The notes below the pieces were generated by a model that ran no database searches, was not told the DNA's origin, and saw nothing but the letters and a program-made list of their open reading frames with translations. A DNA stretch of 64,000 bases from Thiothrix fructosivorans (GTDB taxonomy: Bacteria > Pseudomonadota > Gammaproteobacteria > Thiotrichales > Thiotrichaceae). The DNA lies in contig NZ_JAFMPM010000008.1 in NCBI RefSeq assembly GCF_017349355.1, forward strand, positions 496,001 to 560,000, written 5' to 3'. Below, in pieces: positions 2,428 through 18,386 of the stretch. Each line of letters begins with the position of its first letter. The first letter of the stretch is position 1. Made by a program: the position numbers and the translations under genes.

Positions 2428-3311
2428 ATACAATGATTGATTACCTCAAAGGTGCGTTTACTTATTTATTGGTGATGTTCCTGATAGTTACTTTGTATAC
2501 CGAGTTATCCCATTATTGGAGTACCATCGGTGGCGTTAGGGGAGATCTGGTCAAGTTTGAAATCCCATTGGTGTTGCTCCTGTTATTTATTTTTTATTTT
2601 CCAACCATAAATAATAGAATTATTCGATATTTATTTCCGGTAGTGCCTGTTCTTGTTTTATATCTGTCGGTAGATATTTTCTATGGATTTTTGGGGCGTT
2701 CTCCCAGACCCTCTGATTTTCAAAATATTAATATGGTTTCTGATTTCTCAGTTGGATTGATGTTTTTGATTTTTTTCTTGGGTTTTCTGATCTGCTTTCC
2801 TGTTGTGATGCTTTTTTATAAGGCATATCAAAATCGTTCATTTAAAGATATAATATATTCTGTATTATTCAGGGTGCTGTCGGTTTCTCTTGTACTATTT
2901 GTATTTTTATCTGATACGTTTGCTGACTATCGTGCTTCTAGTTATCAATATACGGAATGGTCACAAGAAAAGTCTATAAAAGAAAATGGTAGATTTTCCA
3001 GCTTTATTTTTTATGGTTATCAAGAAAAGAAAAATTTTTCTCTTCTTAATGAGTATGGCAAGAAAAATATAGATATAAAAGAAATCTTGTTTCCTAATAT
3101 AGTTCGGCATCCTCGTAATATTCATATTGTTGTCTTGGAAAGTTTTATTGATCCAAGACTCTTGCTCAATATTAACTTTAACCGTTCTCCTTTAGCGAAT
3201 GAGTTGATATCTTATTTATTGCCAGCTAGTTATAACTTCTCTCATGTCATCTCCCCTGTGTATGGTGGTAATACTGCTCAGGCAGAGTTTGAATTGCTGA
3301 CTGGCATGTAA
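2424..3311 (+). pseudogene. LTA-synthase-like sulfatase-superfamily membrane enzyme, 5' part (split by IS66-family element)
   Basis: Residues 1-295 of an interrupted gene. The N-terminal ~170 residues contain about five hydrophobic membrane helices. The periplasmic part starts with HIVVLESFIDPRLL, where Glu is the expected metal ligand, and SPVYGGNTAQAEFELLTG, where Thr is the expected catalytic nucleophile. This is the pattern of Gram-negative LTA-synthase/phosphoglycerol transferase relatives. The frame ends at ATG-TAA, where G-TAA is the first four bases of the insertion element. Removing the element and one 8-bp target copy joins this part in frame to 4956-5700 (542 residues in all). Natural substrate unknown; it could modify surface glycans or periplasmic glucans. 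Base composition is AT-richer than neighbouring core genes, suggesting transfer. Confidence 0.85.
3300..3307. repeat. Target site duplication of IS copy 1, left (ACTGGCAT)
   Basis: ACTGGCAT lies directly before the left end of the element and is repeated exactly at 4948-4955 after the right end. An 8-bp duplication is the rule for the IS66 family. Confidence 0.95.
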
Positions 3312-4947
3312 CTGAACAGTCCCCCCTTACCCAAACGCACTAAATTTGCGACACTCCCCCGATGACCCAACAACTGAAAGACCACAGCCTCAAACAGCTT
3401 AACAGCCAGTACCTTGCCAAGCTCACGCCGGAGGAACTGCTGCACCTGTCGACCAAGTTGTTGCATGACCTGAAAGAAGCGCGGGAACAGATCAACCAAA
3501 ACTCCAACAACTCCTCCAAACCACCCAGCAGCGGTTTCCCGTGGGAAACGTCACCCAAAACGGTGGCTTTGCCCGAAACAGAAGGGGTGGGTGCAGCCAG
3601 AGGAAAGCCAACCCCGGAACCAGAAGCTGTGGCGGGCACAAAGCCAGCCCAACCAGCCAAACGCAAAGCGGGTAAACAACCCGGCGCACCGGGTTATGGT
3701 CGGGTATGGCATCCGCCCATCAATGCAGACGAACACCATTACCCCAGCCGATGTGAAGCCTGTGGCAGGTCCCTGGATGCGGCTGTCTCCCGTATTTATA
3801 CCGCCTATGACAGTGTGGACATCCAGTTTGGCACGGATGGGAACCCCGGACTGACCGTCATCACCACCCGCCACCACCTTCACGATAGCGTATGCACCTG
3901 CGGTCATGTGAGCCGCCATATCCCGCATCGCCAAGCTCCCGACCCGTTATACCCGGAGGTTGATGTGGGCGAGTGGCGGCTGATTGGGGGCAATCTGGCG
4001 GCACTTATTGTCCACCTACGGCTGCGCTCACGCTTGTCACTGCGTGGCACACAAGAACTGTTGCGGGAGGTGTTGGGCATTCCCCTAAGTGTCGGGGTGT
4101 TGCAGCAATGTTTTGAGGAAGCAGCCGCGAGTGCTTCTCCATTGGAAGATGCCTTGGTGGAAGGGCTGTTGGCAGAAGCCACCGCTGACGGCGGGGTGCT
4201 GTATATTGATGAAACCTCTTGGAAAGAGCGTGGCGAAGCCCTGTGGCTATGGACATTCGTCACCACCCTCAGCGTTTGTTTCTACGTAGGGCAGCGCACC
4301 ATTGAAATGCTCGACAACGTGATTAGCCCCCACTTTGGGGGCTGGCTGATGAGTGATGGCTATGCCGCTTACCGCCACCACCCCAAACGCTTGCGTTGCT
4401 GGGCGCACCTGATCCGCAAAGCCCGTGGGCTGGCAGAATCACTGGACAAAGACGGGCGGACGTTTGGCAACTTCACCCTCGCTTGGCTGAGGGTATTACA
4501 GGACGACATTTACGCTTGGCGGGCAGCAGGCGGCACGGTGGGGACGCAAACCGACGTGATCCGTCAACGCCATCAGGCAAAACTCCTGGAATTCAGGGCA
4601 TTATGCTTGATCCATGCCGTATCTGCCCATGACAAGACGGCGGCACTGGCGAAAGAGTTCATCAATGATTGGGATGCCATTTTCCGAATCCTTGACCACC
4701 CGTGGCTTCCCTTGACCAATAATGAGGCTGAGCGGGCGTTGCGCCATTGGGTGATCCTGCGCAAAACCAACCATGGCACAAAGAGTGCTACGGGGAGCCG
4801 TGCGTTTGCCATGCTGGCCAGCATCATCGGTACTTGCCGCAAACGTGGACAGTCTGCCTTGGCTTATCTTGCCAGTGTTATTACCGCTGCCCGCGCTGGC
4901 TTTGCCCTGCCCGCTTTACCGCAAGGGGTGGGGATGTGATCAATTAC
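3308..4947 (+). mobile_element. IS66-family insertion sequence, copy 1 (1640 bp, ISBst12-like single-ORF type)
   Basis: The element begins GTAACTGAACAG and ends with the near-inverse of it (right end read inward: GTAATTGATCAC). The limits are fixed by comparing the two copies in this window and by the 8-bp duplication ACTGGCAT on each side. It encodes only a TnpC-type transposase, with no tnpA/tnpB accessory genes, as in the ISBst12 subgroup. It interrupts an LTA-synthase-like gene. The second copy at 11896-13535 has the same length and the same encoded protein, so transposition was recent. Confidence 0.95.
3362..4939 (+). CDS. tnpC: IS66-family transposase (copy 1)
   Basis: 525 residues. 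An N-terminal helical segment and the NSNNSSKPPSS motif (about 47-57), typical of IS66 transposases, are followed by a proline/alanine-rich linker. A zinc-binding domain has CEAC at 131-134 and a second CTC pair. The catalytic core has Asp283 (YIDETSWK), Asp332 (SDGYAAY) and Glu455 (NNEAERALR), consistent with an intact DDE triad. The end carries the usual RAFAMLASIIGTCRKRG block. No mutation of a key residue is visible, so the protein should be active. Confidence 0.95.
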   Translation: MTQQLKDHSLKQLNSQYLAKLTPEELLHLSTKLLHDLKEAREQINQNSNNSSKPPSSGFPWETSPKTVALPETEGVGAARGKPTPEPEAVAGTKPAQPAKRKAGKQPGAPGYGRVWHPPINADEHHYPSRCEACGRSLDAAVSRIYTAYDSVDIQFGTDGNPGLTVITTRHHLHDSVCTCGHVSRHIPHRQAPDPLYPEVDVGEWRLIGGNLAALIVHLRLRSRLSLRGTQELLREVLGIPLSVGVLQQCFEEAAASASPLEDALVEGLLAEATADGGVLYIDETSWKERGEALWLWTFVTTLSVCFYVGQRTIEMLDNVISPHFGGWLMSDGYAAYRHHPKRLRCWAHLIRKARGLAESLDKDGRTFGNFTLAWLRVLQDDIYAWRAAGGTVGTQTDVIRQRHQAKLLEFRALCLIHAVSAHDKTAALAKEFINDWDAIFRILDHPWLPLTNNEAERALRHWVILRKTNHGTKSATGSRAFAMLASIIGTCRKRGQSALAYLASVITAARAGFALPALPQGVGM

Positions 4948-5988: not shown

Positions 5989-8900
5989 ATGCTGATCTTC
6001 CCCGGTAGCGTTGCCCTCTCTGATTTCCGCCGCAACAAGCTGTTGAGCGCCTTGCAAGCCATCGTGCCCACGATCACTGCTGTGCAAGCCGAATACGTCC
6101 ATTTCGTGCGCAACAGCCGCGAATTGCACCCCGACGAACACGCCCAGTTGCAAGCGTTGCTGACCTACGAAGAAGTGCAAGGCAGCCACGCTTTCAGCGG
6201 CACATTGCTGCTCGTCACCCCGCGCAAAGGCACGATTTCGCCTTGGTCAAGCAAAGCCAGCGACATCGCCCACAACTGCGGCTTGACGATGGTGGAACGC
6301 ATCGAACGCGGCATTGCCTACGACATCCAAACCACTGCCGCGCTGTCTGAAGCCGAGCGCCTCGCCATTGCCGCGCTGTTGCACGACCGCATGACTGAAA
6401 TGGTGCTAACCGACCTGCAAGATGCCGTCGTCCTGTTCAGCGAAGCCGAACCCGCCGCCTTGCGCTACGTCGACATCAGCAATGACCCCAAAGCCGCACT
6501 CGCCAAAGCCAACACCGATTGGGGCTTGGCACTCTCTGCTGATGAAATCGACTACCTCGCGGAAAATTACGCCGAACTCCAGCGCAACCCCACCGACGTC
6601 GAATTGATGATGTTCGCACAAGCCAATTCCGAACATTGCCGCCACAAAATCTTCAACGCCGACTGGATTATCGACGGCAAAGAACAGCCCAAATCGCTGT
6701 TTGCCATGATCCGCAACACCCACGCGCACGCGCCCGAAGGCATCCTTTCCGCCTACCATGACAACGCCTCCGTCATCGAAGGCCCCTTGGCAACGCGCTT
6801 TCTGACCGACGTAAAAACCGGCGAATACCACTACACCAACGAACCCGTCCACATCCTCATGAAGGTGGAAACCCACAACCACCCCACCGCGATTTCCCCG
6901 TTTGCGGGTGCTGCGACCGGTTCGGGCGGCGAAATTCGTGACGAAGGCGCAACCGGCAACGGCTCGAAACCCAAGGCTGGCCTGAGCGGTTTCTCGGTAT
7001 CCAACTTACGCATCCCCGGCTACGCCCAGCCGTGGGAACACGATTTCGGCAAACCCGACCGCATCGTTTCCGCCCTCGACATTATGCTCGAAGGCCCTAT
7101 CGGTGCCGCCGCGTTCAATAACGAATTCGGACGCCCTAATATCACCGGCTATTTCCGCACCTTTGAAATGCAAGCCCCCGGTGCCAAAGGCATCGAACTG
7201 CGCGGCTACCACAAGCCGATCATGATTGCAGGCGGCATGGGCAATATCCGCGAAAACAACATCAACAAAAACCCACTGCCCGAAGGTACGCCAATCATCG
7301 TCCTCGGTGGCCCCGCCATGCTGATTGGTTTGGGCGGTGGCGCGGCTTCCTCAATGGCAAGCGGCACGAGTGCAGAAAACCTCGACTTTGCCTCCGTCCA
7401 ACGCGGCAACCCTGAAATGCAACGCCGTTGCCAAGAAGTCATCGACCGCTGCGTAGCCTTGGGTTCAGAAAACCCGATCCTCTCGATCCACGACGTAGGC
7501 GCTGGCGGCATTTCCAACGCCATTCCCGAAATCGTCAACGATGCCGGACGCGGCGGACGCTTTGAACTCCGTGCCGTTCCCAACGCCGAACTCGGCATGG
7601 CTCCGATGGAAATCTGGAGCAATGAAGCGCAAGAACGCTACGTCCTCGCCATTGCCGAAGACCGCCTCGACACTTTCCGCGCCCTGTGCGAACGCGAACG
7701 CGCCGTCTACGCTGTGGTCGGTAGTGCCACGATCGAACAACAATTGCTGGTCGGTGACTCGCTGTTTGACAACAATCCGGTGAATTTGCCAATGAACGTG
7801 CTGCTCGGCAAACCGCCGAAAATGCTGCGCGATGTGCATCACCAGACTTTCCACAAACCAGAAATCGACCTCAGCGGCATTGAACTGGGTGAGGCGATTG
7901 AGCGGGTGTTGCGTTTGCCAACCGTTGCGTCCAAATCCTTCCTGATCACCATCGGCGACCGCACGGTAACGGGCATGGTCACCCGCGACCAAATGGTGGG
8001 CGCATGGCAAGTGCCGGTGGCGGATGTGGCAGTCACCTCCAGCGATTACACCACCAATTTCGGCGAAGCGATGGCGATGGGCGAACGCACCCCGATTGCG
8101 CTGGTGAATCCGGCAGCGTCTGGGCGTATGGCGATTGGCGAAGCCCTCACCAATATCGCGGCGGCAGACATTGCCAATATTCGCAACATCCGTTTGTCGG
8201 CGAACTGGATGGCGGCAGCGGGTTATCACGGCGAAGACGCGGCATTGTTTGACACCGTGAAAGCGGTCGGCGAAGAGCTTTGCCCACGTTTGGGCTTGGC
8301 GATTCCGGTTGGCAAAGACTCTTTGTCGATGAAAACGGTATGGCAGCAAGACGGCGAAAACCGAGAAATGATCGCGCCGTTGTCACTGATCGTCACCGCG
8401 TTTTCACCCGTGCAGGACATCCGCAAAACCCTGACTCCGGCATTGTGTAGCGACGTTGGTGATACCGATCTGATTCTGGTGGATCTGGGCAAAGGGCGTA
8501 ACCGCTTGGCGGCTTCTGCACTGGCGCAAGTCTACGGACAAGTCGGGCATCACGCGCCGGACGTGGATAACCCTGCCGCCCTCAAAGCGTTCTTTGACAC
8601 CGTGCAGGATTTGCGTGGCGAAGATCTGATTCTGGCGTACCACGACCGTGCTGATGGCGGCTTGCTGGCAACACTGGCAGAAATGAGTTTTGCCGGGCAT
8701 GTGGGCGTGACCGCTTGCATCGGGCAAGTGAGTGAGCAATTGCTGCCTGCGCTGTTCAGCGAAGAACTCGGCGCGGTGCTGCAAATCCGCCATTGCGATA
8801 CCGACGCGGTGTTGGAAGCGTTCCGCGAGGCAGGGCTGGCGCATTGCACCCACGTCATTGGCGAATTGAACGACAGCGATGAGCTGGTGCTGACCTTTGC

Positions 8901-9879
8901 CAACAAGGAAGTGTACCGTGCGCCGCGTGCCACGTTGCAGAAGATCTGGGCGGAAACCAGCTACCGGATGCAGGCGTTGCGTGACAATGCCGATTGTGCC
9001 GCGCAAGAGTTTGAGCGACTGGATGATGCGCAAGACCCCGGTTTGCCCTTCGCCCCAACCTTTGAGTTGGATGAAGATGTGGCAGCGCCGTATATCCGCA
9101 CTGGAGTACGTCCCACAGTTGCGGTATTGCGTGAGCAAGGCGTGAACGGGCAGGTGGAAATGGCGGCGGCGTTCGACCGTGCTGGTTTCAAGGCGGTTGA
9201 CGTACACATGACCGATATTATCAGCGGGCGGGTGAAGTTGAAAGATTTCAAAGGCTTGGTGGCGTGTGGCGGCTTTTCCTACGGTGACGTGTTGGGGGCA
9301 GGCGGTGGCTGGGCGAAAACGATTTTGATGAATCCGCGTGCTAGTGATGAATTTGCAGCGTTTTTTGCGCGGCAAGATTCCTTCGGGTTGGGCGTGTGCA
9401 ATGGTTGCCAGATGTTCTCGCAATTGCGTGACATGATCCCCGGTGCTGCGCATTGGCCACGTTTCTACCGCAACCGTTCCGAACAGTTCGAGGCGCGTTA
9501 TTCAGCGGTGGAAGTGTTGGAATCGCCGTCGCTGTTCCTGCAAGGCATGGCTGGCTCGACACTGCCGATTGCAGTGGCGCATGGCGAAGGGCGGGCGGTG
9601 TTCGACACGGCGACGGCTGAAGGTATGTTGGCGGAAGGGCTGGTCGGCTTGCGTTACGTGGATAATCGCGGCAATGCCACTGAGCATTACCCCGAAAACC
9701 CGAACGGTTCGCCGTTGGGGATTACGGGTGTGACCACGGTGGATGGGCGTTTCACTATCATGATGCCGCACCCCGAACGCTTGTTCCGCGCCGTGCAGCA
9801 TTCGTGGAAGCCGGATGATACGGGTGACGATGGCGCGTGGTTGCGGATGTTCCGCAATGCGCGGGTTTGGGTAGGCTAA
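5989..9879 (+). CDS. purL: Phosphoribosylformylglycinamidine synthase (FGAR amidotransferase)
   Basis: 1296 residues, the size of the large single-chain PurL of gammaproteobacteria (E. coli 1295). It converts FGAR, glutamine and ATP to FGAM in purine synthesis, in the cytoplasm. The order is an N-terminal PurS-like part, a linker, two PurM-like ATP-binding halves (motifs [13 protein letters not shown] and [11 protein letters not shown] in the first) and a C-terminal glutaminase. The glutaminase nucleophile is Cys1137 in GLGVCNGCQ, with His1261 and Glu1263 in MPHPERLFR, matching the positions in the E. coli enzyme. It is a stand-alone gene. No strong ribosome site is visible before ATG 5989, but the start aligns with the family. 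Confidence 0.98.
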
Positions 9880-9933
9880 CGCGTTTGTGCTATGCTGATG
9901 CCATGTAATTCTTACGAATAGGAGATGATGGTT

Positions 9934-10284
9934 ATGTCAGCATCACCCGAAGTTATGCAATCCTTAATGGAAAAAATCCGCAACCTTCCTAGTGAACGTG
10001 TTGCGGAAATCGTCGATTTTGTTGAGCGTTTACGCGATAAGCTGGCAAAACAAGGCGATATTGGCGTTGTAAAACCCGCCTTCGAAATCCCCGTTTTGCC
10101 AGTTAAGAAACCCGTTTTGCCAGTTAAGAAAAATGTGACCAATCCTCTTCCTGTTGTAGGTGGAGTAGCCTTCGAAATAGCTTCGGTGGCGCTAACAGGG
10201 GTGGCATATGGTGTTTACAAGAGCTTCAATGAAACAGATTTAAGTTTTAGCCGTGAAGGAATGTATGACGATGATGGGCGGTAA
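9934..10284 (+). CDS. Antitoxin-like protein (DUF2281/VapB type) with PVLPVKK tandem repeat
   Basis: 116 residues from ATG 9934, chosen because GGAG at 9921-9924 is 9 bases away; the ATGs at 9925 and 9928 are too close to it. The start (PEVMQSLMEKIRNLPSERVAEIVDFVERLRDK) is the short helical module found in DUF2281-like antitoxins ('LP.E...EV.DFI.FL'). The middle contains an exact 21-base tandem duplication encoding PVLPVKK twice. A hydrophobic segment (GGVAFEIASVALTGVAYGVY) follows. The end overlaps the next gene, a PIN toxin, so the two form a coupled pair. The antitoxin role comes mainly from context. Confidence 0.65.
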   Translation: MSASPEVMQSLMEKIRNLPSERVAEIVDFVERLRDKLAKQGDIGVVKPAFEIPVLPVKKPVLPVKKNVTNPLPVVGGVAFEIASVALTGVAYGVYKSFNETDLSFSREGMYDDDGR

Positions 10285-10714
10285 GCTATTTGTTGATACC
10301 AATGTGTTGATTTATGCAAGCATTGCCGAGTCTCCTTTTCATCAGGCAGCGCGTCAAGCGTTAGCGGATGCTTATCAAACTTACGATAATCTGTGGATTA
10401 GTCCGCAGGTTATCCGTGAATTTTTGGTGGTATTGACCCGTCCACAGTCAGCGTTTGGTGAAGTATCGCGAGAGGCAGTGATGAGCCAGATTGCTTATTT
10501 TTATCAAAACTTTGCGATTGCTGAAGATTCTGTGTTGGTGAATCAGCATTTGTTACGACTAATCGAAGATTTTCAAGTATCGGGTAAACAAGTACACGAT
10601 ACCAATATTGTCGCTACTATGCAGGCTTATGGTATTAACACCTTGCTGACCCACAATACTAAAGATTTCAAACGATTTACGTCATTGATTCAGTTGCACG
10701 AATTGGTTTCGTGA
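10265..10714 (+). CDS. vapC: PIN-domain toxin (VapC family)
   Basis: About 149 residues; in-frame ATGs at 10265, 10271 and 10274 all lie in the end of the upstream antitoxin gene, so the exact start is open. The PIN motifs are complete: LFVDTNVLIYA (first Asp), VIREFLVVLTR (Glu), HDTNIVATM (Asp) and THNTKDFKRF (Asp). VapC proteins are Mg-dependent ribonucleases that cut tRNA or rRNA when freed from their antitoxin. Codon use resembles neighbours. Confidence 0.85.
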   Translation: MTMMGGKLFVDTNVLIYASIAESPFHQAARQALADAYQTYDNLWISPQVIREFLVVLTRPQSAFGEVSREAVMSQIAYFYQNFAIAEDSVLVNQHLLRLIEDFQVSGKQVHDTNIVATMQAYGINTLLTHNTKDFKRFTSLIQLHELVS

Positions 10715-10747
10715 ATTACCTGATCGTTGCTACAGCAGGAGTTCGTC

Positions 10748-11767
10748 GTGAGTCAGCACTTCATTGAAAATATAAAAATCGAAAATTTCAAATGCTTCGA
10801 AAATCTCGAAATCAACGATTTCAAGCGCGTGAATGTTTTCGGCGGCAAAAACAACGTCGGCAAAACCGCACTGCTCGAAGCGATTGAGCTGTTGGTAAAG
10901 TCGGTTGAACCTAATTCATTGATTTATAATTCTTATTTGTTATTGAAAAATAGGCAGCAGCGTTCAAAGAATATAACGTTGGATTTCTATAAAGATTTTC
11001 CTCATCGTTTCGAGATAAAATCTAATATACGAACTATCAATATTGCAGTTGATAATCTTGTTGAGTTTCATACGACAAATACATCCATAGCGAACATTGA
11101 GTTTTCAGTAAATCACGGAAAAAGCAATTTTTCTACAGAGAACTTTTCCAATGGTAATCTTTATGGCGCATTGCATGATTATTTTAAAAATATTATATTT
11201 AACAGTTATTTTATTAAATCTTCAAAGATTGATGATAAATTTTTGAGTGTATTGTACGGTTTTGTTTCCGAGCTTAATAAAGAGGATTTTGTAAATAATT
11301 CCATAAATAATTTTGACTCATCAATAATGACATTCAAAATCATTCAAACAGAAGATGAAGCGATTCCAAAATTAAAAATTCAAGGACGAGATAAGTTAGT
11401 TCCGTTGTCTGAAATGGGTGATGGGATTAGTCGTTATGTGACGATTCTCTGTGCGATTTGGGCAAGTCAGAACGGTTTTTTGTTCATTGATGAAATTGAA
11501 AATGGTATCCACTATTCAAACTATAAGAAATTGTGGGAATTGATTTTCATGGCAAGTGAGCAAGCGAATTGCCAAGTGTTCGTTACGACACACTCTAAAG
11601 AGTGTATCGAGGCGTTCAACAATGTGCAGCAAGAGCGTAATGATGATACGGGTCGTTACTTTGAGTTGTACCGAAGTGAGAAAAAACAACGAATCGTGGC
11701 GGCTGTTCGTGATGCCGAACAACTTCATTATTCTCTGACTCATGGGGCAGCTATTCGTGGCGAATAA
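10748..11767 (+). CDS. OLD-like AAA/ABC-type ATPase (first gene of an ATPase-TOPRIM defence-like unit)
   Basis: 339 residues from GTG 10748, with CAGGAG 7 bases upstream. It begins ENIKIENFKCFENLEINDF, the standard opening of SMC/RecF-like OLD ATPases. Walker A is GGKNNVGKT (32-40), the signature-like PLSEMGDGISRYV lies near residue 220, Walker B is FLFIDEIENG (Asp248, Glu249) and the switch His is in VFVTTHSKE. There is no TOPRIM domain in this chain; it is supplied by the next gene, which overlaps by 11 bases and is split by an IS element. Such ATPase/TOPRIM pairs are typical of anti-phage systems (OLD, AbiL, PARIS relatives). The middle third is AT-rich compared with the flanks. Confidence 0.85.
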   Translation: MSQHFIENIKIENFKCFENLEINDFKRVNVFGGKNNVGKTALLEAIELLVKSVEPNSLIYNSYLLLKNRQQRSKNITLDFYKDFPHRFEIKSNIRTINIAVDNLVEFHTTNTSIANIEFSVNHGKSNFSTENFSNGNLYGALHDYFKNIIFNSYFIKSSKIDDKFLSVLYGFVSELNKEDFVNNSINNFDSSIMTFKIIQTEDEAIPKLKIQGRDKLVPLSEMGDGISRYVTILCAIWASQNGFLFIDEIENGIHYSNYKKLWELIFMASEQANCQVFVTTHSKECIEAFNNVQQERNDDTGRYFELYRSEKKQRIVAAVRDAEQLHYSLTHGAAIRGE

Positions 11768-11903
11768 ACATATCTTGGTCGTAGAAAGTCATAATGACAA
11801 ACTGTTTATTGAGCAACTGATAGTTCATCTGAAAAATATCAATCTTGAGGTGTCGCCACCAATTTGTAATATTGACGAGTATGAGTGTCTGAGTGGTAAC
11901 TGA
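11757..11903 (+). pseudogene. DUF3226/TOPRIM-like gene, 5' part (split by IS66-family element)
   Basis: GTG 11757 opens a frame overlapping the ATPase end and reading VANKHILVVESHNDKLFIEQ, the typical start of DUF3226/TOPRIM-like proteins (Glu in VVES as the first metal ligand). The frame runs to CLSG and then into the IS left end, stopping at 11903. Joining it to 13544 after removing the element and one TCTGAGTG restores ...EYECLSGLSEKKLSDKL in frame, giving a 224-residue protein. Confidence 0.85.
11888..11895. repeat. Target site duplication of IS copy 2, left (TCTGAGTG)
   Basis: TCTGAGTG directly precedes the left end of the second element copy and is repeated exactly at 13536-13543. Confidence 0.95.
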
Positions 11904-13535
11904 ACAGTCCCCCCTTACCCAAACGCACTAAATTTGCGACACTCCCCCGATGACCCAACAACTGAAAGACCACAGCCTCAAACAGCTTAACAGCCAGTAC
12001 CTTGCCAAGCTCACGCCGGAGGAACTGCTGCACCTGTCGACCAAGTTGTTGCATGACCTGAAAGAAGCGCGGGAACAGATCAACCAAAACTCCAACAACT
12101 CCTCCAAACCACCCAGCAGCGGTTTCCCGTGGGAAACGTCACCCAAAACGGTGGCTTTGCCCGAAACAGAAGGGGTGGGTGCAGCCAGAGGAAAGCCAAC
12201 CCCGGAACCAGAAGCTGTGGCGGGCACAAAGCCAGCCCAACCAGCCAAACGCAAAGCGGGTAAACAACCCGGCGCACCGGGTTATGGTCGGGTATGGCAT
12301 CCGCCCATCAATGCAGACGAACACCATTACCCCAGCCGATGTGAAGCCTGTGGCAGGTCCCTGGATGCGGCTGTCTCCCGTATTTATACCGCCTATGACA
12401 GTGTGGACATCCAGTTTGGCACGGATGGGAACCCCGGACTGACCGTCATCACCACCCGCCACCACCTTCACGATAGCGTATGCACCTGCGGTCATGTGAG
12501 CCGCCATATCCCGCATCGCCAAGCTCCCGACCCGTTATACCCGGAGGTTGATGTGGGCGAGTGGCGGCTGATTGGGGGCAATCTGGCGGCACTTATTGTC
12601 CACCTACGGCTGCGCTCACGCTTGTCACTGCGTGGCACACAAGAACTGTTGCGGGAGGTGTTGGGCATTCCCCTAAGTGTCGGGGTGTTGCAGCAATGTT
12701 TTGAGGAAGCAGCCGCGAGTGCTTCTCCATTGGAAGATGCCTTGGTGGAAGGGCTGTTGGCAGAAGCCACCGCTGACGGCGGGGTGCTGTATATTGATGA
12801 AACCTCTTGGAAAGAGCGTGGCGAAGCCCTGTGGCTATGGACATTCGTCACCACCCTCAGCGTTTGTTTCTACGTAGGGCAGCGCACCATTGAAATGCTC
12901 GACAACGTGATTAGCCCCCACTTTGGGGGCTGGCTGATGAGTGATGGCTATGCCGCTTACCGCCACCACCCCAAACGCTTGCGTTGCTGGGCGCACCTGA
13001 TCCGCAAAGCCCGTGGGCTGGCAGAATCACTGGACAAAGACGGGCGGACGTTTGGCAACTTCACCCTCGCTTGGCTGAGGGTATTACAGGACGACATTTA
13101 CGCTTGGCGGGCAGCAGGCGGCACGGTGGGGACGCAAACCGACGTGATCCGTCAACGCCATCAGGCAAAACTCCTGGAATTCAGGGCATTATGCTTGATC
13201 CATGCCGTATCTGCCCATGACAAGACGGCGGCACTGGCGAAAGAGTTCATCAATGATTGGGATGCCATTTTCCGAATCCTTGACCACCCGTGGCTTCCCT
13301 TGACCAATAATGAGGCTGAGCGGGCGTTGCGCCATTGGGTGATCCTGCGCAAAACCAACCATGGCACAAAGAGTGCTACGGGGAGCCGTGCGTTTGCCAT
13401 GCTGGCCAGCATCATCGGTACTTGCCGCAAACGTGGACAGTCTGCCTTGGCTTATCTTGCCAGTGTTATTACCGCTGCCCGCGCTGGCTTTGCCCTGCCC
13501 GCTTTACCGCAAGGGGTGGGGATGTGATCAATTAC
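11896..13535 (+). mobile_element. IS66-family insertion sequence, copy 2 (1640 bp)
   Basis: Same ends (GTAACTGAACAG on the left; GTAATTGATCAC inward from the right), same length and same single transposase gene as the copy at 3308-4947. I found no base difference in the stretches compared by eye. It is flanked by the 8-bp duplication TCTGAGTG and interrupts the DUF3226/TOPRIM-like gene of a defence-like pair. Confidence 0.95.
11950..13527 (+). CDS. tnpC: IS66-family transposase (copy 2)
   Basis: 525 residues, identical in sequence to the copy at 3362-4939, with the same Asp/Asp/Glu residues (283, 332, 455) and zinc-binding cysteines intact. Identity between copies together with intact target duplications means both insertions are young and the element is probably still mobile. 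Confidence 0.95.
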   Translation: MTQQLKDHSLKQLNSQYLAKLTPEELLHLSTKLLHDLKEAREQINQNSNNSSKPPSSGFPWETSPKTVALPETEGVGAARGKPTPEPEAVAGTKPAQPAKRKAGKQPGAPGYGRVWHPPINADEHHYPSRCEACGRSLDAAVSRIYTAYDSVDIQFGTDGNPGLTVITTRHHLHDSVCTCGHVSRHIPHRQAPDPLYPEVDVGEWRLIGGNLAALIVHLRLRSRLSLRGTQELLREVLGIPLSVGVLQQCFEEAAASASPLEDALVEGLLAEATADGGVLYIDETSWKERGEALWLWTFVTTLSVCFYVGQRTIEMLDNVISPHFGGWLMSDGYAAYRHHPKRLRCWAHLIRKARGLAESLDKDGRTFGNFTLAWLRVLQDDIYAWRAAGGTVGTQTDVIRQRHQAKLLEFRALCLIHAVSAHDKTAALAKEFINDWDAIFRILDHPWLPLTNNEAERALRHWVILRKTNHGTKSATGSRAFAMLASIIGTCRKRGQSALAYLASVITAARAGFALPALPQGVGM

Positions 13536-13543
13536 TCTGAGTG
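13536..13543. repeat. Target site duplication of IS copy 2, right (TCTGAGTG)
   Basis: Exact repeat of 11888-11895 immediately after the right end of the element. Confidence 0.95.
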
Positions 13544-14079
13544 GACTTTCAGAGAAAAAACTGAGTGATAAATTGAACGATTTGCGTATAGCTAGCGATA
13601 AAGAAGGTATCAGTAAAATTGGCATTATGGTCGATGCCGATGCCAACGGAATTGATGCTCAACTAGCATTGGTCAATTCATCACTCAAAAAAGCAGGCTT
13701 CACTATCGCTATCCCATCAGTGAATACTTGGATTTATGATGAGAGTCATTCTTTGAATATTTCATGTCATGTGTTAAATGTTGGTGGATGTGGTGAATTA
13801 GAAACGATGTTGCGGGCTATAAAATCTAATGAATCAGTTGTAGCTGATTGTTTGGAGTCATGGCGCGAATGCCTTAATGATAAAAGTAAGACGATAAAGC
13901 AAAAAGATTTTGATAAATTTTGGGTGAGTGTTTATCAGCGTTTTGATTGTTGTTCAAGAAATGACAGAAAGCAAGCAGATCGAAAATGTTCTTTTGAAGC
14001 CAGCATGAAAAAGCCTATTTGGGACTTTGAGCACACTGCCTTGGCTGAACTCAAAGCCTATTTGGGGATGTTTACGTAA
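13544..14079 (+). pseudogene. DUF3226/TOPRIM-like gene, 3' part (split by IS66-family element)
   Basis: Carries the rest of the protein: SKIGIMVDADANGIDAQ (the paired Asp residues of a TOPRIM-like metal site), NVGGCGELETML (family-typical acidic motif) and the C-terminal KKPIWDFEHTALAELKAYL. These are the hallmarks of DUF3226. A TTG at 13573 could start a shortened product, but it would lack the N-terminal Glu. The gene is AT-rich like its ATPase partner. The next gene downstream (14101) is convergent. Confidence 0.82.
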
Positions 14080-14100
14080 AAAGTGTGGATATTTTCCGCC

Positions 14101-15777
14101 TTACCCCTTCCCAAACGCTGCTATCAACATCTCCACCATCGCTTTGCGTGATTTGTAACGGTTGCAAAAATCCTTGACCAAATTATGCGCCATGTTTGCT
14201 CCATCGGGCATTTTGGCGAGCACGTTCAGCTCGTCAATGACTCGCTCGTAGGCCGTCCTTCCGGTGTTGTCACGCAGGTAATCACAAATCTGGCTGGCGT
14301 AGGTTGCTTTAACTTCGTGTGGAAACGCTGTCGCCAGCAAGGGAGCATAGCGTTTGAAAAGGGATGCGCTTTGACCGGGGATCGAGGGCTGTTTGATGAG
14401 TTCATAGAGCGCGGGAATATCATTTTCTTCCTGCAATAGCATGGCTCTGGCGGAGTCGTAGCCGCGTGGAACAGGAATCATCCCATACAGCCGTTGCTGT
14501 GCACTTGCCCATTCTTCCGCTGGATAAGTCGCTTTGAGTTTGCGGTAATGCTCCAGCGAATACTGAGTGATTTGATACAAATGTTCCAGTTCGGTGCGAA
14601 TGGTGGGTATATCGTCCTGCAAATAGGCGATTTCTAATAAACGCTTGCGCCATCGGCTAATTGTTCCTGCATTTTTTTGTTGTTCTGCCAAGCGGATACC
14701 CGCTTGCAACAGGCTGCGGGCTTTGTCGTAGTCTTTAGCGTCGATGGCTTTCTGTATGAAGGTGTCGCGGAAGTCAGGAATTTCCATGTGTGTGGTCGCA
14801 ACCGCTTCCATTTCGTCCAGCCTGTTCCACGTTTTGAGTAACGCCATTTTTTGACGCAACAAGGCATCACGTCGCCAATCATTGGGGCTGGACTGTACGT
14901 GTTTGTCTAACGCTTGCAGATAAATGTTCTGATCGGTTTCACTGTGTTGCGCCCATTCTTCCAGCAGTTTGGTAAAAGTATCTTCTAGCCCGTATTCGCT
15001 GTAGCGGGAGTCAAATTGGGTGGCGAGTACGCGTTTGAACAAGGCGGCTTGTTCAGAGGTGGGAAGTTGTGGATAGGCGGTGGCGAGTTCATCCTTGATG
15101 CTGTACATCAGGCTGTTGAGTTCGCCGTTGGAATCGTCAACGTCGTTTGCAATACCTGCGATGCCTTGGGCAATGGTGAAGCAGATTTCTACTTTGGCAG
15201 CAGAAGCAAGGTTAGAGGCTGATAAGGTGTCCAGCAGTTCCTGCACTTCATCCGCGAACGCGCTGGCAGCGTCTTCGTCGATGTAATCATAGCTGGAATA
15301 TTGACGGGCGATTTTATCAAACAATTGCTGGTATTGTTTGGTGGGCGCTTCTGTAGTGGGGGTAACGACTTGGAAACGCAGCAAGAATTTATCCAGCAGC
15401 TTGCGGTCGTCGTGCAGCAGTTGGCGGATATAGGTGGCTAAGTCTTCCCGTTTGAGGGTGTTTAGTACCTGATCCAGTTGTTGGCGTTTGGTGGGTGGCG
15501 CTGGGAAAGTTGGTTTTACCCGCAACTGCTGGCGTATATTGAGCAAGCTGGCAGCGACGTGCTTGCAAATGTAGCCATCATAAGGGCAGGTGCATGACCA
15601 ATCGCTGATTTCCTTGCCATCCAATTGGATTTCTACATCGTAAGTGCGCGTCCCCTGTACATCCGCTTGCCAGAATTCAGGTTCAGTTTCTTCCAAATTG
15701 TGGACGTATTGCGTGTAGCTTCTGCCGCGTTGCATGATGACCGCATTAATGTGTTGCTCAAAATTATCCAGATTCAT
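14101..15777 (-). CDS. SWIM zinc-finger protein
   Basis: 558 residues on the minus strand. The N-terminal 85 residues hold a SWIM finger, CxC(6)CxH, visible as SCTCPYDGYICKH, preceded by a beta-rich region (DVEIQLDGKEISDW). The remaining ~470 residues are helical with TPR-like repetition (for example KAIDAKDYDKARSLLQAGIRLAE). SWIM domains bind nucleic acid or protein and occur in bacteria beside SNF2 ATPases; no SNF2 gene is visible here. Function unknown. It is convergent with the split TOPRIM gene. Confidence 0.8.
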   Translation of the reverse strand: MNLDNFEQHINAVIMQRGRSYTQYVHNLEETEPEFWQADVQGTRTYDVEIQLDGKEISDWSCTCPYDGYICKHVAASLLNIRQQLRVKPTFPAPPTKRQQLDQVLNTLKREDLATYIRQLLHDDRKLLDKFLLRFQVVTPTTEAPTKQYQQLFDKIARQYSSYDYIDEDAASAFADEVQELLDTLSASNLASAAKVEICFTIAQGIAGIANDVDDSNGELNSLMYSIKDELATAYPQLPTSEQAALFKRVLATQFDSRYSEYGLEDTFTKLLEEWAQHSETDQNIYLQALDKHVQSSPNDWRRDALLRQKMALLKTWNRLDEMEAVATTHMEIPDFRDTFIQKAIDAKDYDKARSLLQAGIRLAEQQKNAGTISRWRKRLLEIAYLQDDIPTIRTELEHLYQITQYSLEHYRKLKATYPAEEWASAQQRLYGMIPVPRGYDSARAMLLQEENDIPALYELIKQPSIPGQSASLFKRYAPLLATAFPHEVKATYASQICDYLRDNTGRTAYERVIDELNVLAKMPDGANMAHNLVKDFCNRYKSRKAMVEMLIAAFGKG

Positions 15778-15837
15778 GGTGTGTCAGTGTGGTGTCGATG
15801 CCTGAATTATAGTGAAGTTTACGGTGCTTTTGCGGTA

Positions 15838-16362
15838 TCAATTCTGTCTGCGCATCACGTAAACCGGTTGTGCAGCCAGCCAGCTACGTAATACTACCAA
15901 TGTCAATGCGCCGATAAAACACGCACCTTCGGTGAGCGTGCGGATGAGGTTGCCATTTGCCCAACCATCCCGCGTGCTTTGCCAGTCTGAGGGTAGTGCT
16001 GCTGGATTCCAGCCCAATATTTCTTGATGCAGCGGAATGTTGATGACGATGCTGACCCAATAGACCCCGATGAAATGCACCAGTGCCACGATCAGCCAAT
16101 ACAGCGCCACGCGGCGTTGGCTTTTCCACGCTGCCATGCCTGCCGAGACAAAGGGAAAGAGGGTTGCGCCGAAAAACAGTAAGGCAAAACCGAGGTTGCG
16201 CGGGGTTTGGTTGAGGTGTTGCTGCATTTGGGTGTACGTGGTGGCATCCACTTGTTGAAGGGCGGGGGCAACATCCAGCGTGAAGGCTGTAAATACGCCA
16301 CAGAGGATGCCTAGCAAAATGGTGGCGAGGAGTTGCGGGATGAGGAGGATTTTTGGGTTCAT
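15838..16362 (-). CDS. DUF1772 (anthrone oxygenase-like) membrane protein
   Basis: 174 residues, about four hydrophobic helices: residues 5-28, ~55-78, ~85-108 and ~142-160. The layout, with QQHLNQTPRNLGFALLFFGATLFPF in the second helix region, matches the DUF1772 family of small integral membrane proteins. The chemical activity of bacterial members is not established. It is separated from the SWIM gene by 60 bases, same strand, and is divergent from the GNAT at 16419. Confidence 0.7.
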   Translation of the reverse strand: MNPKILLIPQLLATILLGILCGVFTAFTLDVAPALQQVDATTYTQMQQHLNQTPRNLGFALLFFGATLFPFVSAGMAAWKSQRRVALYWLIVALVHFIGVYWVSIVINIPLHQEILGWNPAALPSDWQSTRDGWANGNLIRTLTEGACFIGALTLVVLRSWLAAQPVYVMRRQN

Positions 16363-16418
16363 GGTTTTGGGCTAAAAAGGGGTAGAGTATACGCGTCTGG
16401 ATTTTTGGAGTCAGTCTA

Positions 16419-17156
16419 ATGAAGCATCAACGTATTCCCATGACTGTCGAGGAGTACCATCTGATGGAGCAGCCGTTCGGTTACAAGGTGGAATATTGGG
16501 ATGATCATGCGGTTATTACGCCGCGTGAAAATCATGTTGTTACCCAGTTAAGGGTGGTGGCACGGGTAGTGTCGCCTGTTTGCCGTTTGGTTGCGCTTGA
16601 CCCTAGCCGACAGCAAGAAATGGCTGAAACCTTCTTTGACGCTTTTCATGACACGGTTGAATTCTGTGACTGGAACGAGAGCCATGTTCGGGAGTTCGCT
16701 GCCCATAGTATTAGCGGTTATTTTGCTGGGAAGCGCGGCGTACCATATCCTGCTTCTGTGATGGCATTGGCTGAGGATGGTAGCATTATTGGGCTGACGT
16801 TATTGCTGACAGACGAGGCGGGGGAGGTGTGCTTGGATTTGTTGTGTGTTGTGCCTGCTTATCAACGTCAGAAAATTGCCACCAGTATGGTTGCCTCGGT
16901 GGTTAATCATCTCGCTGTGATGGGTGTCGAGACATTGAGTAGTGCTTACCACATTTGTAACGACAGTAGTCGTCATTGGCATCATCTGTTTGGTTTTGTG
17001 GATGTTTATGACCAGATGTATATCCGCTTGAAATATGCTTGGTATCGGAATGAAGTTTGGCGGCGTGACAAGTTGGGGCTAGTCGATGGGTTGGATGCGC
17101 TGAAGGCGGAACGGGATTTTTGGTTGGCGCAACTTGATGAGTCTGCCCGATATTAG
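16419..17156 (+). CDS. GNAT-family N-acetyltransferase
   Basis: 245 residues. A short N-terminal segment (MTVEEYHLMEQPFGYKVEYW) resembles the substrate-side extension seen in a subset of GNAT proteins. The acetyl-CoA fold is recognisable in VCLDLLCVVPAYQRQKIATSM, the 'V.P.yRrkGig..L' pyrophosphate-binding loop in slightly altered form (QRQKIA instead of RGxGIG/A). The C-terminal ~50 residues form a charged helical tail. Substrate unknown. TGGAG precedes ATG 16419. Confidence 0.75.
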   Translation: MKHQRIPMTVEEYHLMEQPFGYKVEYWDDHAVITPRENHVVTQLRVVARVVSPVCRLVALDPSRQQEMAETFFDAFHDTVEFCDWNESHVREFAAHSISGYFAGKRGVPYPASVMALAEDGSIIGLTLLLTDEAGEVCLDLLCVVPAYQRQKIATSMVASVVNHLAVMGVETLSSAYHICNDSSRHWHHLFGFVDVYDQMYIRLKYAWYRNEVWRRDKLGLVDGLDALKAERDFWLAQLDESARY

Positions 17157-17203
17157 CTGAATATCGGAGGGCATCCACGATCTTTACTCAATTTTGCCTG
17201 TGT

Positions 17204-17422
17204 TTACACACCTAAAGCATCCAGTTCATCCAGCAGTTGTAATGCCCGCTTGGGGTTGCCGCGTAACTTTGCCGCTATAAAGCGTTGTTTGGCTTCTTCC
17301 TCAGCTAATACTTGCACCGATAATTCAAACATGAGCTTGTTCAGGCTGATGTCGCGGAATTTGGCGATACGCTTGAGCTTTTCCGCCATGTCTTCGGGTA
17401 AACGGATGGATAACGTTGTCAT
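17204..17422 (-). CDS. Ribbon-helix-helix antitoxin (orphan)
   Basis: 72 residues beginning TLSIRLPEDMAEKLKRIAKF, a standard ribbon-helix-helix start (TLSIRLP strand, then two helices), followed by an acidic tail. It resembles CopG/HicB-type antitoxins. No intact toxin accompanies it: the sequence just upstream on the same strand retains only a C-terminal toxin-like remnant (17424-17510). Confidence 0.75.
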   Translation of the reverse strand: MTTLSIRLPEDMAEKLKRIAKFRDISLNKLMFELSVQVLAEEEAKQRFIAAKLRGNPKRALQLLDELDALGV

Positions 17423-17423
17423 G

Positions 17424-17510
17424 CTCTTAATAACCTCAGTATCTGTTCCGGTGTGATGACTTCATAGCCCAAACGCTTGAGTTCCGCACGGGAAATTACA
17501 AGGAAATCGG
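17424..17510 (-). pseudogene. C-terminal remnant of a PIN-family toxin
   Basis: On the minus strand, in a frame overlapping the antitoxin start, the sequence reads PDFLVISRAELKRLGYEVIT and then PEQILRLLRA before TGA. The ending 'EV(I/V)TPEQ(F/I)L' is typical of PIN-family toxin C-termini. Everything upstream is replaced by the terminator of the next gene. About 29 codons survive. Confidence 0.5.
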
Positions 17511-17529
17511 GATATATTCCCCGATTTCC
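17502..17529 (-). terminator. Intrinsic-type hairpin after the exported coiled-coil gene
   Basis: GGAAATCGGG and its complement flank a 7-8 base AT loop just after the stop at 17541. The minus-strand continuation (TTGTAATTT) is moderately T-rich. Confidence 0.6.
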
Positions 17530-17540
17530 TATCTTGATCG

Positions 17541-18386
17541 TTATTCCATCAGTTGAACACTTAAACACGATGAGTTACTTAACTCTCCACTATAAGTATC
17601 ACGAAGTGTTATTTGCTGACTAGCGGGGTCTAAACCTACAATAGTATAAGTGTGCAAGTTCGTGTTAGAAGCACTCATGCCAAAGAGGCTTATTGTGTTC
17701 CTAGTTCTACGCTCAACTTTTTTGTTGATGTATAGTCCTGAACAGCCTTTGGCGCTTGCTGCTGATCGTCGTTGGCTTTCAGCCTGTGCCTTTCTTGTTT
17801 CTTGCTCTCTAGATTCTGCTGCCTCGTGAGCTTCATCCACTTTTTTCTTGGCTTCCGCTTGTGCGTGGCGTGTTTTCAAGCTCCAAGGATCGCCAGCTTG
17901 CTCGCTCATGGATTTTTTTCTGGAATCGTAGGTTTTGTTGCAATTTTCGCTTTTCATGCTGACATTGCCATCTTCTACTTCAGCCGTGCCATTCACGAGC
18001 TTACTGGTTACGCTGTATTGCTTTGCTGGGGTGCAGCTTTCAACGTATTCGATGACAGGTGAAGTGTCGTTGCTGCCATTCGACCAAAGATAAGTGTACC
18101 CCGGTTTGAGTTCCAAGGTTTTGGTTGCCTGTTGCGTGGCGGTTTCTTCCGCTTTAATTGCTTGTTGTGTGGCGCTTTCTTCCGCTTTAGCAACGCTTTG
18201 GCTGTGCAGGCTCATGATTCCACCTAACAAGAGAAGTCCACCCACCACAGCGGCGGCTTGCCCATCTGACATTTCACTTGTACTAGAAGATGATGAGCCA
18301 CCAGTAATAGTTTGGTCTGCGAAAACGTATGAACTGTTGGCAATAAGCGAGATTGCCAAGCATGTGCTGAGGATATGCTTTTGCAT
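17541..18386 (-). CDS. Exported protein with coiled coil, unknown function
   Basis: 281 residues from ATG 18386, preceded by AGGAG; a longer frame from 18512 is rejected because a clear signal peptide starts here (MQKHILSTCLAISLIANSSYVFA). After cleavage come a Ser-rich stretch, a Gly/Ala hydrophobic segment (AAAVVGGLLLLGGIM), a short internal repeat (EESATQQAIKA / EETATQQATKT), a Cys-containing middle domain, and a charged coiled coil (about 170-225, KTRHAQAEAKKKVDEAHEA). A C-terminal beta-rich domain follows with conserved-looking ITLRDTYSGEL. I do not recognise the family. It is divergent from an XRE regulator. Confidence 0.7.
   Translation of the reverse strand: MQKHILSTCLAISLIANSSYVFADQTITGGSSSSSTSEMSDGQAAAVVGGLLLLGGIMSLHSQSVAKAEESATQQAIKAEETATQQATKTLELKPGYTYLWSNGSNDTSPVIEYVESCTPAKQYSVTSKLVNGTAEVEDGNVSMKSENCNKTYDSRKKSMSEQAGDPWSLKTRHAQAEAKKKVDEAHEAAESREQETRKAQAESQRRSAASAKGCSGLYINKKVERRTRNTISLFGMSASNTNLHTYTIVGLDPASQQITLRDTYSGELSNSSCLSVQLME

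What the first reader, a model, noticed from the sequence alone, without database searches (positions are those of the whole stretch)
10748..14079. Two-gene ATPase plus TOPRIM-like (DUF3226) unit, disarmed by the IS
The OLD-like ATPase is intact, and its GTG-started partner overlaps it by 11 bases and carries Glu and Asp-x-Asp of a TOPRIM-like site. Architecture resembles OLD/AbiL/PARIS anti-phage systems but with a DUF3226 partner. The insertion may have relieved autoimmunity from the nuclease part. The restored pair is the best candidate for an under-described defence system in the window.
Basis: partly seen in the sequence, partly recalled or inferred. Interest (0 to 1): 0.75.

Follow-up and report, generated by a model that had tools for sequence, protein, structure and literature searches.

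The report
IS-broken ATPase–TOPRIM phage-defence pair
A bacterial gene pair that looks like an anti-virus suicide system (an ATPase sensor plus a nuclease) has been switched off here by a jumping gene, while intact relatives in sister species appear to swap the sensor part and the nuclease part independently.

Summary
A GTG-started AAA_15 ATPase (10748-11767) overlaps by 11 bases a DUF3226 gene (GTG 11757) split by a 1,640-bp IS66 element (11896-13535, 8-bp target duplication). Intact relatives exist, one at the same purL site in a sister species. DUF3226 is probably an OLD-type TOPRIM nuclease: conserved E, D, DxD, E, K match the published OLD site in order, and the intact relative's model (pLDDT 92) finds OLD first in the PDB, though weakly. 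The pair is near-obligate, accessory, and found on small plasmids; one Thiomargarita contig has four pairs beside PARIS and HEC-01. PADLOC already lists it as candidate PDC-M38; no paper naming it was found. 'Relief of autoimmunity' is not needed: at least 40 identical full copies of the IS sit in this genome. New: at a second locus (upstream of rep, 12 of 16 genus genomes) the ATPase's middle part, and its tail plus DUF3226, are exchanged independently between sharp breakpoints, like a swappable sensor and a swappable effector. Likely function: PARIS-like abortive infection. Defence is untested; neighbour enrichment was inconclusive.

The parts
9925..10714 (+). Antitoxin-like (DUF2281-like, sub-cut-off) gene and PIN-domain toxin-like gene (VapBC type, my label) directly upstream
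   Evidence: Pfam: DUF2281 0.0076 (below cut-off), PIN 3.6e-12. PIN gene identical at the nucleotide level in G426 while purL has dS 0.31.
10748..11767 (+). ATPase (GTG start, 339 aa), OLD/RecF/Rad50-like ABC-type; best PADLOC models PDC-M38A and AbiLi
   Evidence: AAA_15 4e-25; PDC-M38A 1e-58, AbiLi 1.8e-56; AF2 pLDDT 90.3; Foldseek top matches PtuA, retron complexes, Rad50
10841..10867 (+). Walker A / P-loop GGKNNVGKT
   Evidence: Invariant G33, N35, G38, K39 in alignments A7 and A9
10895..11392 (+). Central variable cassette of the ATPase (about residues 50-215), proposed sensor
   Evidence: Window vs G426: residues 50-181 dS 2.6, dN 0.82, against residues 1-49 dN 0 and residues 240-339 dN 0.008; 5 of 63 order genomes match this segment, own included
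11477..11506 (+). Walker B FLFIDEIENG; H282 of the TTHS motif at 11591-11593
   Evidence: D248, E249, H255, H282 invariant
11615..11764 (+). ATPase C-terminal tail, proposed docking surface for the partner; holds invariant Arg337
   Evidence: At the rep-linked locus tail identity tracks DUF3226 identity (r 0.78, 0 of 5000 permutations as high), sensor identity does not (r 0.12)
11757..11903 (+). N-terminal piece of the DUF3226 gene (GTG start; native up to 11895, stop TGA lies in the IS); carries TOPRIM Glu (11784-11786) and second acidic residue Asp (11796-11798)
   Evidence: DUF3226 2-39 at E 0.0042, sub-cut-off; 51% identity to the intact relative L006; E14 and D18 invariant in A6 and A8
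11888..11895 (+). 8-bp target-site duplication, left copy TCTGAGTG
11896..13535 (+). IS66-family element, 1,640 bp; transposase 11950-13527; imperfect terminal repeats GTAACTGA / GTAATTGA
   Evidence: NF033517 1.3e-64 over cut-off; ends; 40 full-length identical copies listed in own genome, this one included
13536..13543 (+). 8-bp target-site duplication, right copy TCTGAGTG
13573..14079 (+). C-terminal piece of the DUF3226 gene (listed ORF, TTG); carries Asp-x-Asp (13633-13641), GELE with the catalytic-type Glu (13792-13803) and the Lys (13915-13917)
   Evidence: DUF3226 48-203 at 4.4e-13, over cut-off; 54% identity to L006; D81, D83, G134, L136, E137, K175 invariant or nearly so

Best explanation
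A two-gene abortive-infection type anti-phage module (PADLOC candidate PDC-M38) whose effector gene was inactivated by a recent IS66 insertion. Shown: an ABC-type ATPase gene overlaps a gene whose product family (DUF3226) has the OLD-type TOPRIM active-site residues, and the second gene is interrupted. Inferred: the ATPase assembles as a scaffold that holds the TOPRIM nuclease inactive through its C-terminal tail. The variable central part of the ATPase senses a phage product, and sensing frees or activates the nuclease, which then cuts host (and phage) nucleic acid and stops the infection, as AriA/AriB do in PARIS. In relatives the sensor cassette and the tail-plus-effector cassette are replaced independently, most simply by recombination, which would change the trigger or the killing activity while the ATP motor stays. 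In the window only the ATPase can be made whole, so this copy should be inert. A second intact pair stands upstream of rep in the same genome, and a third, more divergent pair lies about 25 kb from that one.
For: Domain and PADLOC hits. Invariant E14, D18, D81, G134, K175 and near-invariant D83, L136, E137 in 50 sequences (K175 falls to near-invariant in the 46-sequence realignment) match E400/E404/D455/D457/E508/K562 of Class 2 OLD (passages of PMC6755086) in order; E14 to D18 keeps the +4 spacing. AF2 of an intact relative pLDDT 92.2; Foldseek rank 1 XccOLD 6njv (prob 0.99), rank 6 BpOLD 6nk8. The sequence profile ranks AriB first in the PDB, at E 0.07. The ATPase profile hits PtuA, OLD, GajA, AriA. 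Near-obligate pairing. Pair-less sites in sister species at both loci. The pair is on 4-14-kb plasmids and follows the tail genes of a prophage-like region. Four pairs beside PARIS and HEC-01 in L031. Independent cassette exchange with sharp breakpoints; no such dip in RecF of the same genomes.
Against: No defence, toxicity or nuclease assay. Two other PADLOC candidates (PDC-M63AB, PDC-S04) tested in their native host showed no activity (passages of PMC12409345), so candidate status is weak evidence. Defence genes are not clearly enriched within 4.5 kb. Foldseek counts no PDB match with E <= 0.001, TM-scores are low (0.36/0.39), and an unrelated receptor and KaiC entries rank between the OLD hits. 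hhalign finds no link to one AriB homologue (prob 0.3). No relative in phage records (two queries), E. coli genomes (two DNA queries) or viral contigs (two scans). The rep-linked pair is in 12 of 16 genus genomes, which could also suit a domesticated role. Tail and DUF3226 are not always coupled: window vs G426 and two Acinetobacter plasmid alleles keep the tail while DUF3226 differs.
Confidence: 0.7

Rival explanations
1. An addiction (toxin-antitoxin) module: DUF3226 is a toxin nuclease, the ATPase its antitoxin, and the main selected role is maintenance of the carrying element rather than phage defence.
For: The pair is carried by small plasmids of mobilizable or ColE-type. It sits beside PIN, BrnTA and RelE-type genes. 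DUF3226-only breaks outnumber ATPase-only breaks 6 to 1 among 85 loci, the window left out.
Against: A variable, swapped middle domain in the ATPase is not expected of a plain antitoxin. At the two loci studied in the genus the pair is in large contigs beside purL or rep, with pair-less sites in sisters.
Confidence: 0.15
2. A housekeeping or domesticated DNA-repair pair of RecF/Rad50 type that works with the Rep helicase.
For: RecF, Rad50 and SMC similarity. The pair stands immediately upstream of rep in 12 of 16 genus genomes.
Against: Four of 16 genomes lack the pair but keep rep; in two of them the flanking homologous stretches are 14 and 28 bp apart instead. Alleles are swapped and divergent. 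The pair is patchy elsewhere, 9 of 369 class genomes, and the window-type pair is not by rep.
Confidence: 0.07
3. Anti-plasmid or anti-conjugation nuclease (Wadjet-like outcome) rather than an anti-phage system.
For: ABC-type ATPase plus TOPRIM is also the logic of Wadjet JetABC/JetD (passage of PMC10568477).
Against: The pair is itself carried by small plasmids. Whether further subunits accompany it was not tested.
Confidence: 0.08

Closest known systems
PDC-M38 (PADLOC phage-defence candidate)
   Same: Best PADLOC models for the ATPase (PDC-M38A 1e-58); intact relatives of the partner hit PDC-M38B (6.4e-13 for Thiofilum, 1.6e-63 for the rep-linked copy).
   Different: Only a bioinformatic candidate; 0 papers found under that name. 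The window's own partner pieces score weakly (1.8e-4 and 7e-3); the gene is split, and even the whole Thiofilum relative scores far lower than the rep-linked copy, so its subfamily is divergent.
PARIS (AriA ATPase + AriB DUF4435 TOPRIM)
   Same: Separate, adjacent AAA_15-type ATPase and TOPRIM genes; AriB is the best, sub-significant PDB sequence hit of the partner profile. In L031 a PARIS pair stands next to DUF3226 pairs.
   Different: The partner is DUF3226, not DUF4435; hhalign to one AriB homologue fails. Trigger and target unknown.
OLD nucleases (Class 1/2), Gabija GajA
   Same: OLD-like ATPase and OLD-type TOPRIM residues E, E/D, DxD, E, K; OLD C-terminal regions among the top PDB folds.
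   Different: Domains on two genes. No GajB-type helicase follows the window pair. Rep follows the other locus, but rep is also present without the pair.
AbiL (AbiLi + AbiLii)
   Same: The ATPase scores almost as well on AbiLi (1.8e-56) as on PDC-M38A.
   Different: No AbiLii hit for the partner pieces or the intact relatives scanned.

Membership tests
PDC-M38 | PDC-M38A-type ATPase | tested here: met
   1e-58, best PADLOC hit
PDC-M38 | PDC-M38B-type partner directly downstream | tested here: met
   Met through relatives: window pieces weak (1.8e-4, 7e-3); intact relatives 6.4e-13 and 1.6e-63; ATPase sequence directly upstream in 45 of 47 loci
PDC-M38 | Protects against phage | not testable with these tools
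   No assay; no paper found
PARIS (OLD class 4) | ATPase and TOPRIM on separate adjacent genes | tested here: met
PARIS (OLD class 4) | DUF4435 (AriB) partner | tested here: not met
   DUF3226, no DUF4435 hit; AriB model only 0.0058 for an intact relative; hhalign prob 0.3
OLD class 1/2 and Gabija | TOPRIM active site E, E/D, DxD, E, K | tested here: met
   against passages; sequence level only, geometry not measured
OLD class 1/2 and Gabija | ATPase and TOPRIM fused in one chain | tested here: not met
   Two genes in the window and in the relatives listed
Gabija | Dedicated UvrD-like helicase GajB downstream | tested here: not met
   Window: the next gene is the convergent 14101-15777 gene. 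rep at the other locus exists without the pair in 4 of 4 pair-less genomes
AbiL | AbiLii partner | tested here: not met
   No AbiLii hit at E 1 (pieces) or 0.01 (intact relatives)
IS66 element | IS66 transposase and 8-bp target duplication | tested here: met
   over cut-off; 19 of 20 other copies examined also show an 8-bp duplication

The most novel reading that the evidence does not exclude
PDC-M38 loci act as fixed chromosomal receptor-effector sockets. Within one genus the ATPase keeps its P-loop end and its Walker B core, while two cassettes, the central sensor and the C-terminal tail plus DUF3226 nuclease, are exchanged independently by homologous recombination through the conserved stretches. 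This gives a mix-and-match arsenal (10 sensor types and 7 effector types in 12 genomes), comparable in logic to specificity-domain shuffling in restriction systems but in an ATPase-TOPRIM abortive-infection system.
Probability: 0.6. Interest if true: 0.78.

Novelty: new variant of a known kind. Interest (0 to 1): 0.62.

Why it matters
It gives an unstudied PADLOC candidate a concrete, testable anatomy: an OLD-type TOPRIM nuclease effector (DUF3226), an ATPase whose hypervariable middle probably reads the phage signal, and an ATPase tail that mostly follows the effector. The natural swaps (same sensor with different effector in G417/G418; same effector type with different sensor in G425/G426) form a ready-made experiment to find which part of an OLD/PARIS-type ATPase senses phage, without engineering anything. 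It also cautions against reading the IS hit as selected: the IS is in a burst.

Tried and rejected
Led nowhere: phage records, E. coli genomes and two viral-contig scans gave no relative. The viral fold library gave no match with E <= 0.001. Profile comparison of DUF3226 with single AriB and HEC-01B homologues failed (prob 0.3 and 2.3); an unrelated control, the transposase, gave 0.2. Two literature searches on hypervariable or modular exchange gave nothing on these genes in their listings (3 papers; 0). A third, on PARIS sensor and effector modules, gave 2 papers, seen in the listing only. A search on PDC-M candidates listed 14 papers, of which one was looked at in passages: it tested two other candidates and saw no activity. 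Two PARIS structure papers were not held.

Rejected or weakened. (1) Selection for disarming as the cause of this insertion: the IS is in a burst. (2) Defence-island enrichment: I compared 96 neighbour genes of 16 pair loci with 101 genes of control windows; 16 windows were fetched for these genomes and 15 yielded genes, L112 none. The four further windows (L122-L125) were not used. PADLOC hits at 1e-15 named 24 families against 12. Near the pairs: PDC-S01 (3 genes), mad3 (2), mad2 (2), PDC-M08B (2), and one gene each for type II or orphan methyltransferase, PD-DExK, dCTPase, AriA and mad8 models. In the controls: mad3 (4), PDC-M72A (2), and one each for DinG, mad8, PsyrT, BrxHI, DpdF, LeoBC, LeoA and SngC models. 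The tool counts per family, not per gene, and such models can hit ordinary ATPases and helicases, so I call it inconclusive. (3) Gabija-like operon with rep: rep is there without the pair. (4) PARIS, AbiL or OLD membership: see the membership table. (5) The sensor exchange is strongest in the window's genus. In a Planktothrix/Oscillatoriales group the middle part is conserved (0.88-0.95 identity), and a locus in another genus shows a milder form. (6) In one search the rep comparison contained a mis-framed extraction (minimum identity 0.07); one search repeats it correctly.
Full report
WHAT IS THERE. The ATPase is whole. The partner gene starts inside the ATPase's last codons and is cut by an IS66 element after 46 codons and one base. 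The IS is 1,640 bp with an 8-bp target duplication. The N piece keeps the TOPRIM Glu and a second acidic residue four positions on. The C piece keeps Asp-x-Asp, the Glu of GELE and the Lys. So no single product of the locus can hold the whole site.

THE PARTNER LOOKS LIKE AN OLD-TYPE TOPRIM. In 50 aligned DUF3226 proteins E14, D18, D81, G134 and K175 are invariant and V13, G77, D83, R90, L136, E137 and L224 nearly so; in the 46-sequence realignment K175 is nearly invariant. Class 2 OLD uses E400, E404, D455, D457, E508 and K562 (PMC6755086, passages). The order is the same, and the +4 spacing of the first two is the same. AlphaFold2 of the intact Thiofilum relative with 46 sequences gives pLDDT 92.2 and pTM 0.88. 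E14 follows the first strand, D81 ends a central strand, E137 is near the start of the next helix and K175 lies in a later helix, in keeping with the OLD passages. Foldseek ranks the Xanthomonas OLD C-terminal region first (E printed as 1.0e-3, probability 0.99, TM 0.36/0.39) and the Burkholderia one sixth; a receptor complex and KaiC entries stand between, and the tool counts no match with E <= 0.001. By sequence profile AriB of PARIS is the best PDB hit, but at E 0.07. This supports the fold but does not prove it.

THE ATPASE. The profile hits PtuA (1.4e-13), TsOLD, GajA, RecF, Rad50 and AriA. The window protein's own model has pLDDT 90.3, and its nearest folds are PtuA, retron complexes and Rad50. 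P-loop, Walker B and H-loop residues are invariant, and so is a C-terminal Arg337.

THE PAIR IS A UNIT. In the class search 9 of 369 genomes hold DUF3226, in 11 places. Of the 10 places outside the window, 9 are intact and have the ATPase directly upstream, and the tenth is a degraded pair. In the genome-contig search 47 loci were found, from Gammaproteobacteria, Campylobacterota, Cyanobacteria, Bacteroidota and Brachyspira among others; 45 show ATPase sequence, in a few only fragments. Of 85 loci judged (L006/L017, L007/L022 and L008/L051 are the same places seen twice, all intact; the window's own locus left out) 66 have both genes whole. In 6 only DUF3226 is broken, in 1 only the ATPase, and in 4 both are broken or degraded. 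Five are cut by record ends, and in 3 the partner is too divergent or fragmentary to judge. Draft-assembly frameshifts are not excluded.

THE WINDOW SITE IN SISTERS. The genus is probably Thiothrix, which is my inference. Between purL and a SWIM-like gene (my label), G425 has 31 bp and no pair. G427 has Uma2 and three unknown genes. G422 has a Uma2-like gene. G426 has the PIN gene, an intact pair and the Uma2 gene. Thiofilum also has its pair directly after purL (first member: purL domains). So the site is variable and the pair is accessory.

MOSAIC ALLELES AT THE WINDOW SITE. Against G426, ATPase residues 1-49 are identical in protein (dS 0.03). Residues 50-181 have dS 2.6 and dN 0.82, residues 182-239 dS 2.1 and dN 0.29, and residues 240-339 dS 0.36 and dN 0.008. 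The DUF3226 pieces have dS 1.6-2.2 and dN about 0.25. purL has dS 0.31 and the PIN gene is identical (my own Nei-Gojobori-type script). Recombination with a distant allele is the simplest explanation of such steps within one kilobase.

A SECOND LOCUS REPEATS IT. The same genome has an intact pair immediately upstream of rep (L001, L104), as do 11 of 15 genus relatives. In G421 and G420 the flanking homologous stretches are 14 and 28 bp apart, without the pair; G416 and G422 have rep but no DUF3226 and other DNA upstream. Over 66 genome pairs the median amino-acid identity is 0.97 for ATPase 1-40, 0.22 for 41-180, 0.74 for 181-258, 0.56 for the tail and 0.45 for DUF3226; rep gives 0.92, range 0.89-1.00 (which corrects a mis-framed extraction). 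RecF from the same genomes, a P-loop ATPase whose model these ATPases also match in part, gives 0.69, 0.75 and 0.80 for its three parts, with no central dip. Single-linkage clustering at 60% (sensor), 85% (tail) and 75% (DUF3226) identity gives 10 sensor types and 7 tail/DUF3226 types in 12 genomes. Tail and DUF3226 identity correlate (r 0.78, 0 of 5000 permutations as high); sensor and DUF3226 do not (r 0.12, p 0.22). G417 and G418 are 92-100% identical per 60 bases from base 60 up to codon ~254, then 40-70% through the tail and DUF3226, then 92-100% in rep. G425 and G426 agree at 87-98% from base 60 to codon ~43, fall to 52% or less in most windows of the middle (rising to 0.78 near its end), and agree at 93-100% through the tail and most of DUF3226, with a further drop (0.48-0.80) near its end. 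So the middle and the tail-plus-effector are exchanged separately. The coupling of tail to DUF3226 is not absolute. A pair locus in another genus shows a milder version. In a Planktothrix/Oscillatoriales group the middle is conserved.

DEFENCE LINKS. On a Thiomargarita MAG contig (L031) six ATPase-TOPRIM pairs follow each other in about 11 kb: PARIS (AriA 9e-60, AriB 1.1e-41, DUF4435 2.6e-31), three DUF3226 pairs, HEC-01 (A 1.4e-115, B 6.1e-75), and a fourth DUF3226 pair. The pair is on a 6.4-kb ColE10-type Citrobacter plasmid and a 4.1-kb Klebsiella plasmid, where little else is annotated, on 9.7-14.3-kb Acinetobacter plasmids, and after tail genes of a prophage-like region in Plesiomonas (the plasmid gene tables are incomplete). 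But a controlled look at neighbours of 16 pair loci was inconclusive, two other PADLOC candidates failed a native-host test in print (PMC12409345, passages), and the phage and viral searches made here found no carrier.

WHY THE INSERTION NEED NOT BE ADAPTIVE. Forty full-length 100% identical copies of the IS, the window's included, are listed in the genome, plus a near-full one; 40 of 65 candidates were scored, so this is a lower bound. Of 20 other copies examined (of the 39 other full-length ones listed), 19 have the 8-bp duplication and 10 lie in stop-free frames of 196 codons or more, which need not all be genes. A chance hit is enough. The skew towards broken DUF3226 keeps the cost of the effector as a possibility.

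MECHANISM. PARIS is the best template: AriA sequesters AriB, a phage protein frees it, and AriB cuts tRNA (PMC11455837, whole text; PMC12409363, passages). By analogy the DUF3226 nuclease is held by the ATPase tail and released when the variable middle meets its trigger. Shown here: gene pairing, active-site residues, cassette exchange. Inferred: holding, sensing, release, cell arrest. Unknown: trigger, and RNA or DNA as target.

NOVELTY. PADLOC already names the pair as a candidate, so it is not a new system. The OLD-type site assignment for DUF3226 and the two-cassette exchange were not found in the library searched; preprints and most subscription papers are not held.

Noticed in passing
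L031 (Thiomargarita contig) 6852-18277: Six consecutive ATPase-TOPRIM pairs: PARIS, three DUF3226 pairs, HEC-01, a fourth DUF3226 pair; a PD-T4-4_A-like ATPase stands nearby.
   Followed up: partly
L105 14985-16564 (own genome, contig C7): Third ATPase pair in the same genome; partner of 196 aa is only a sub-cut-off DUF3226 (0.0065) but matches the DUF3226 profile by hhalign (prob 90.8).
   Followed up: partly
window 11896-13535, also window 3308-4947: One IS66 element is listed in 40 identical full-length copies in this genome: a very recent burst, with 10 of 20 examined other copies in stop-free frames of 196 codons or more.
   Followed up: partly
window 10253-10714: PIN (VapC-like) gene is nucleotide-identical in sister species G426 although purL next to it has dS 0.31: suggests very recent exchange together with the start of the ATPase gene.
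   Followed up: partly
L100 4507-6584: In G427 the purL/SWIM site holds a Uma2 gene and three small genes instead of the pair; the two of the three checked against Pfam had no hit.
   Followed up: no
L017 4799-10687: In Thiofilum flexile the related pair also stands directly downstream of purL, as in the window genome.
   Followed up: no
L147 and L149 (Acinetobacter plasmids): ATPases 98-100% identical in all four parts while the DUF3226 partners are only 78% identical: another hint of separate effector exchange.
   Followed up: no
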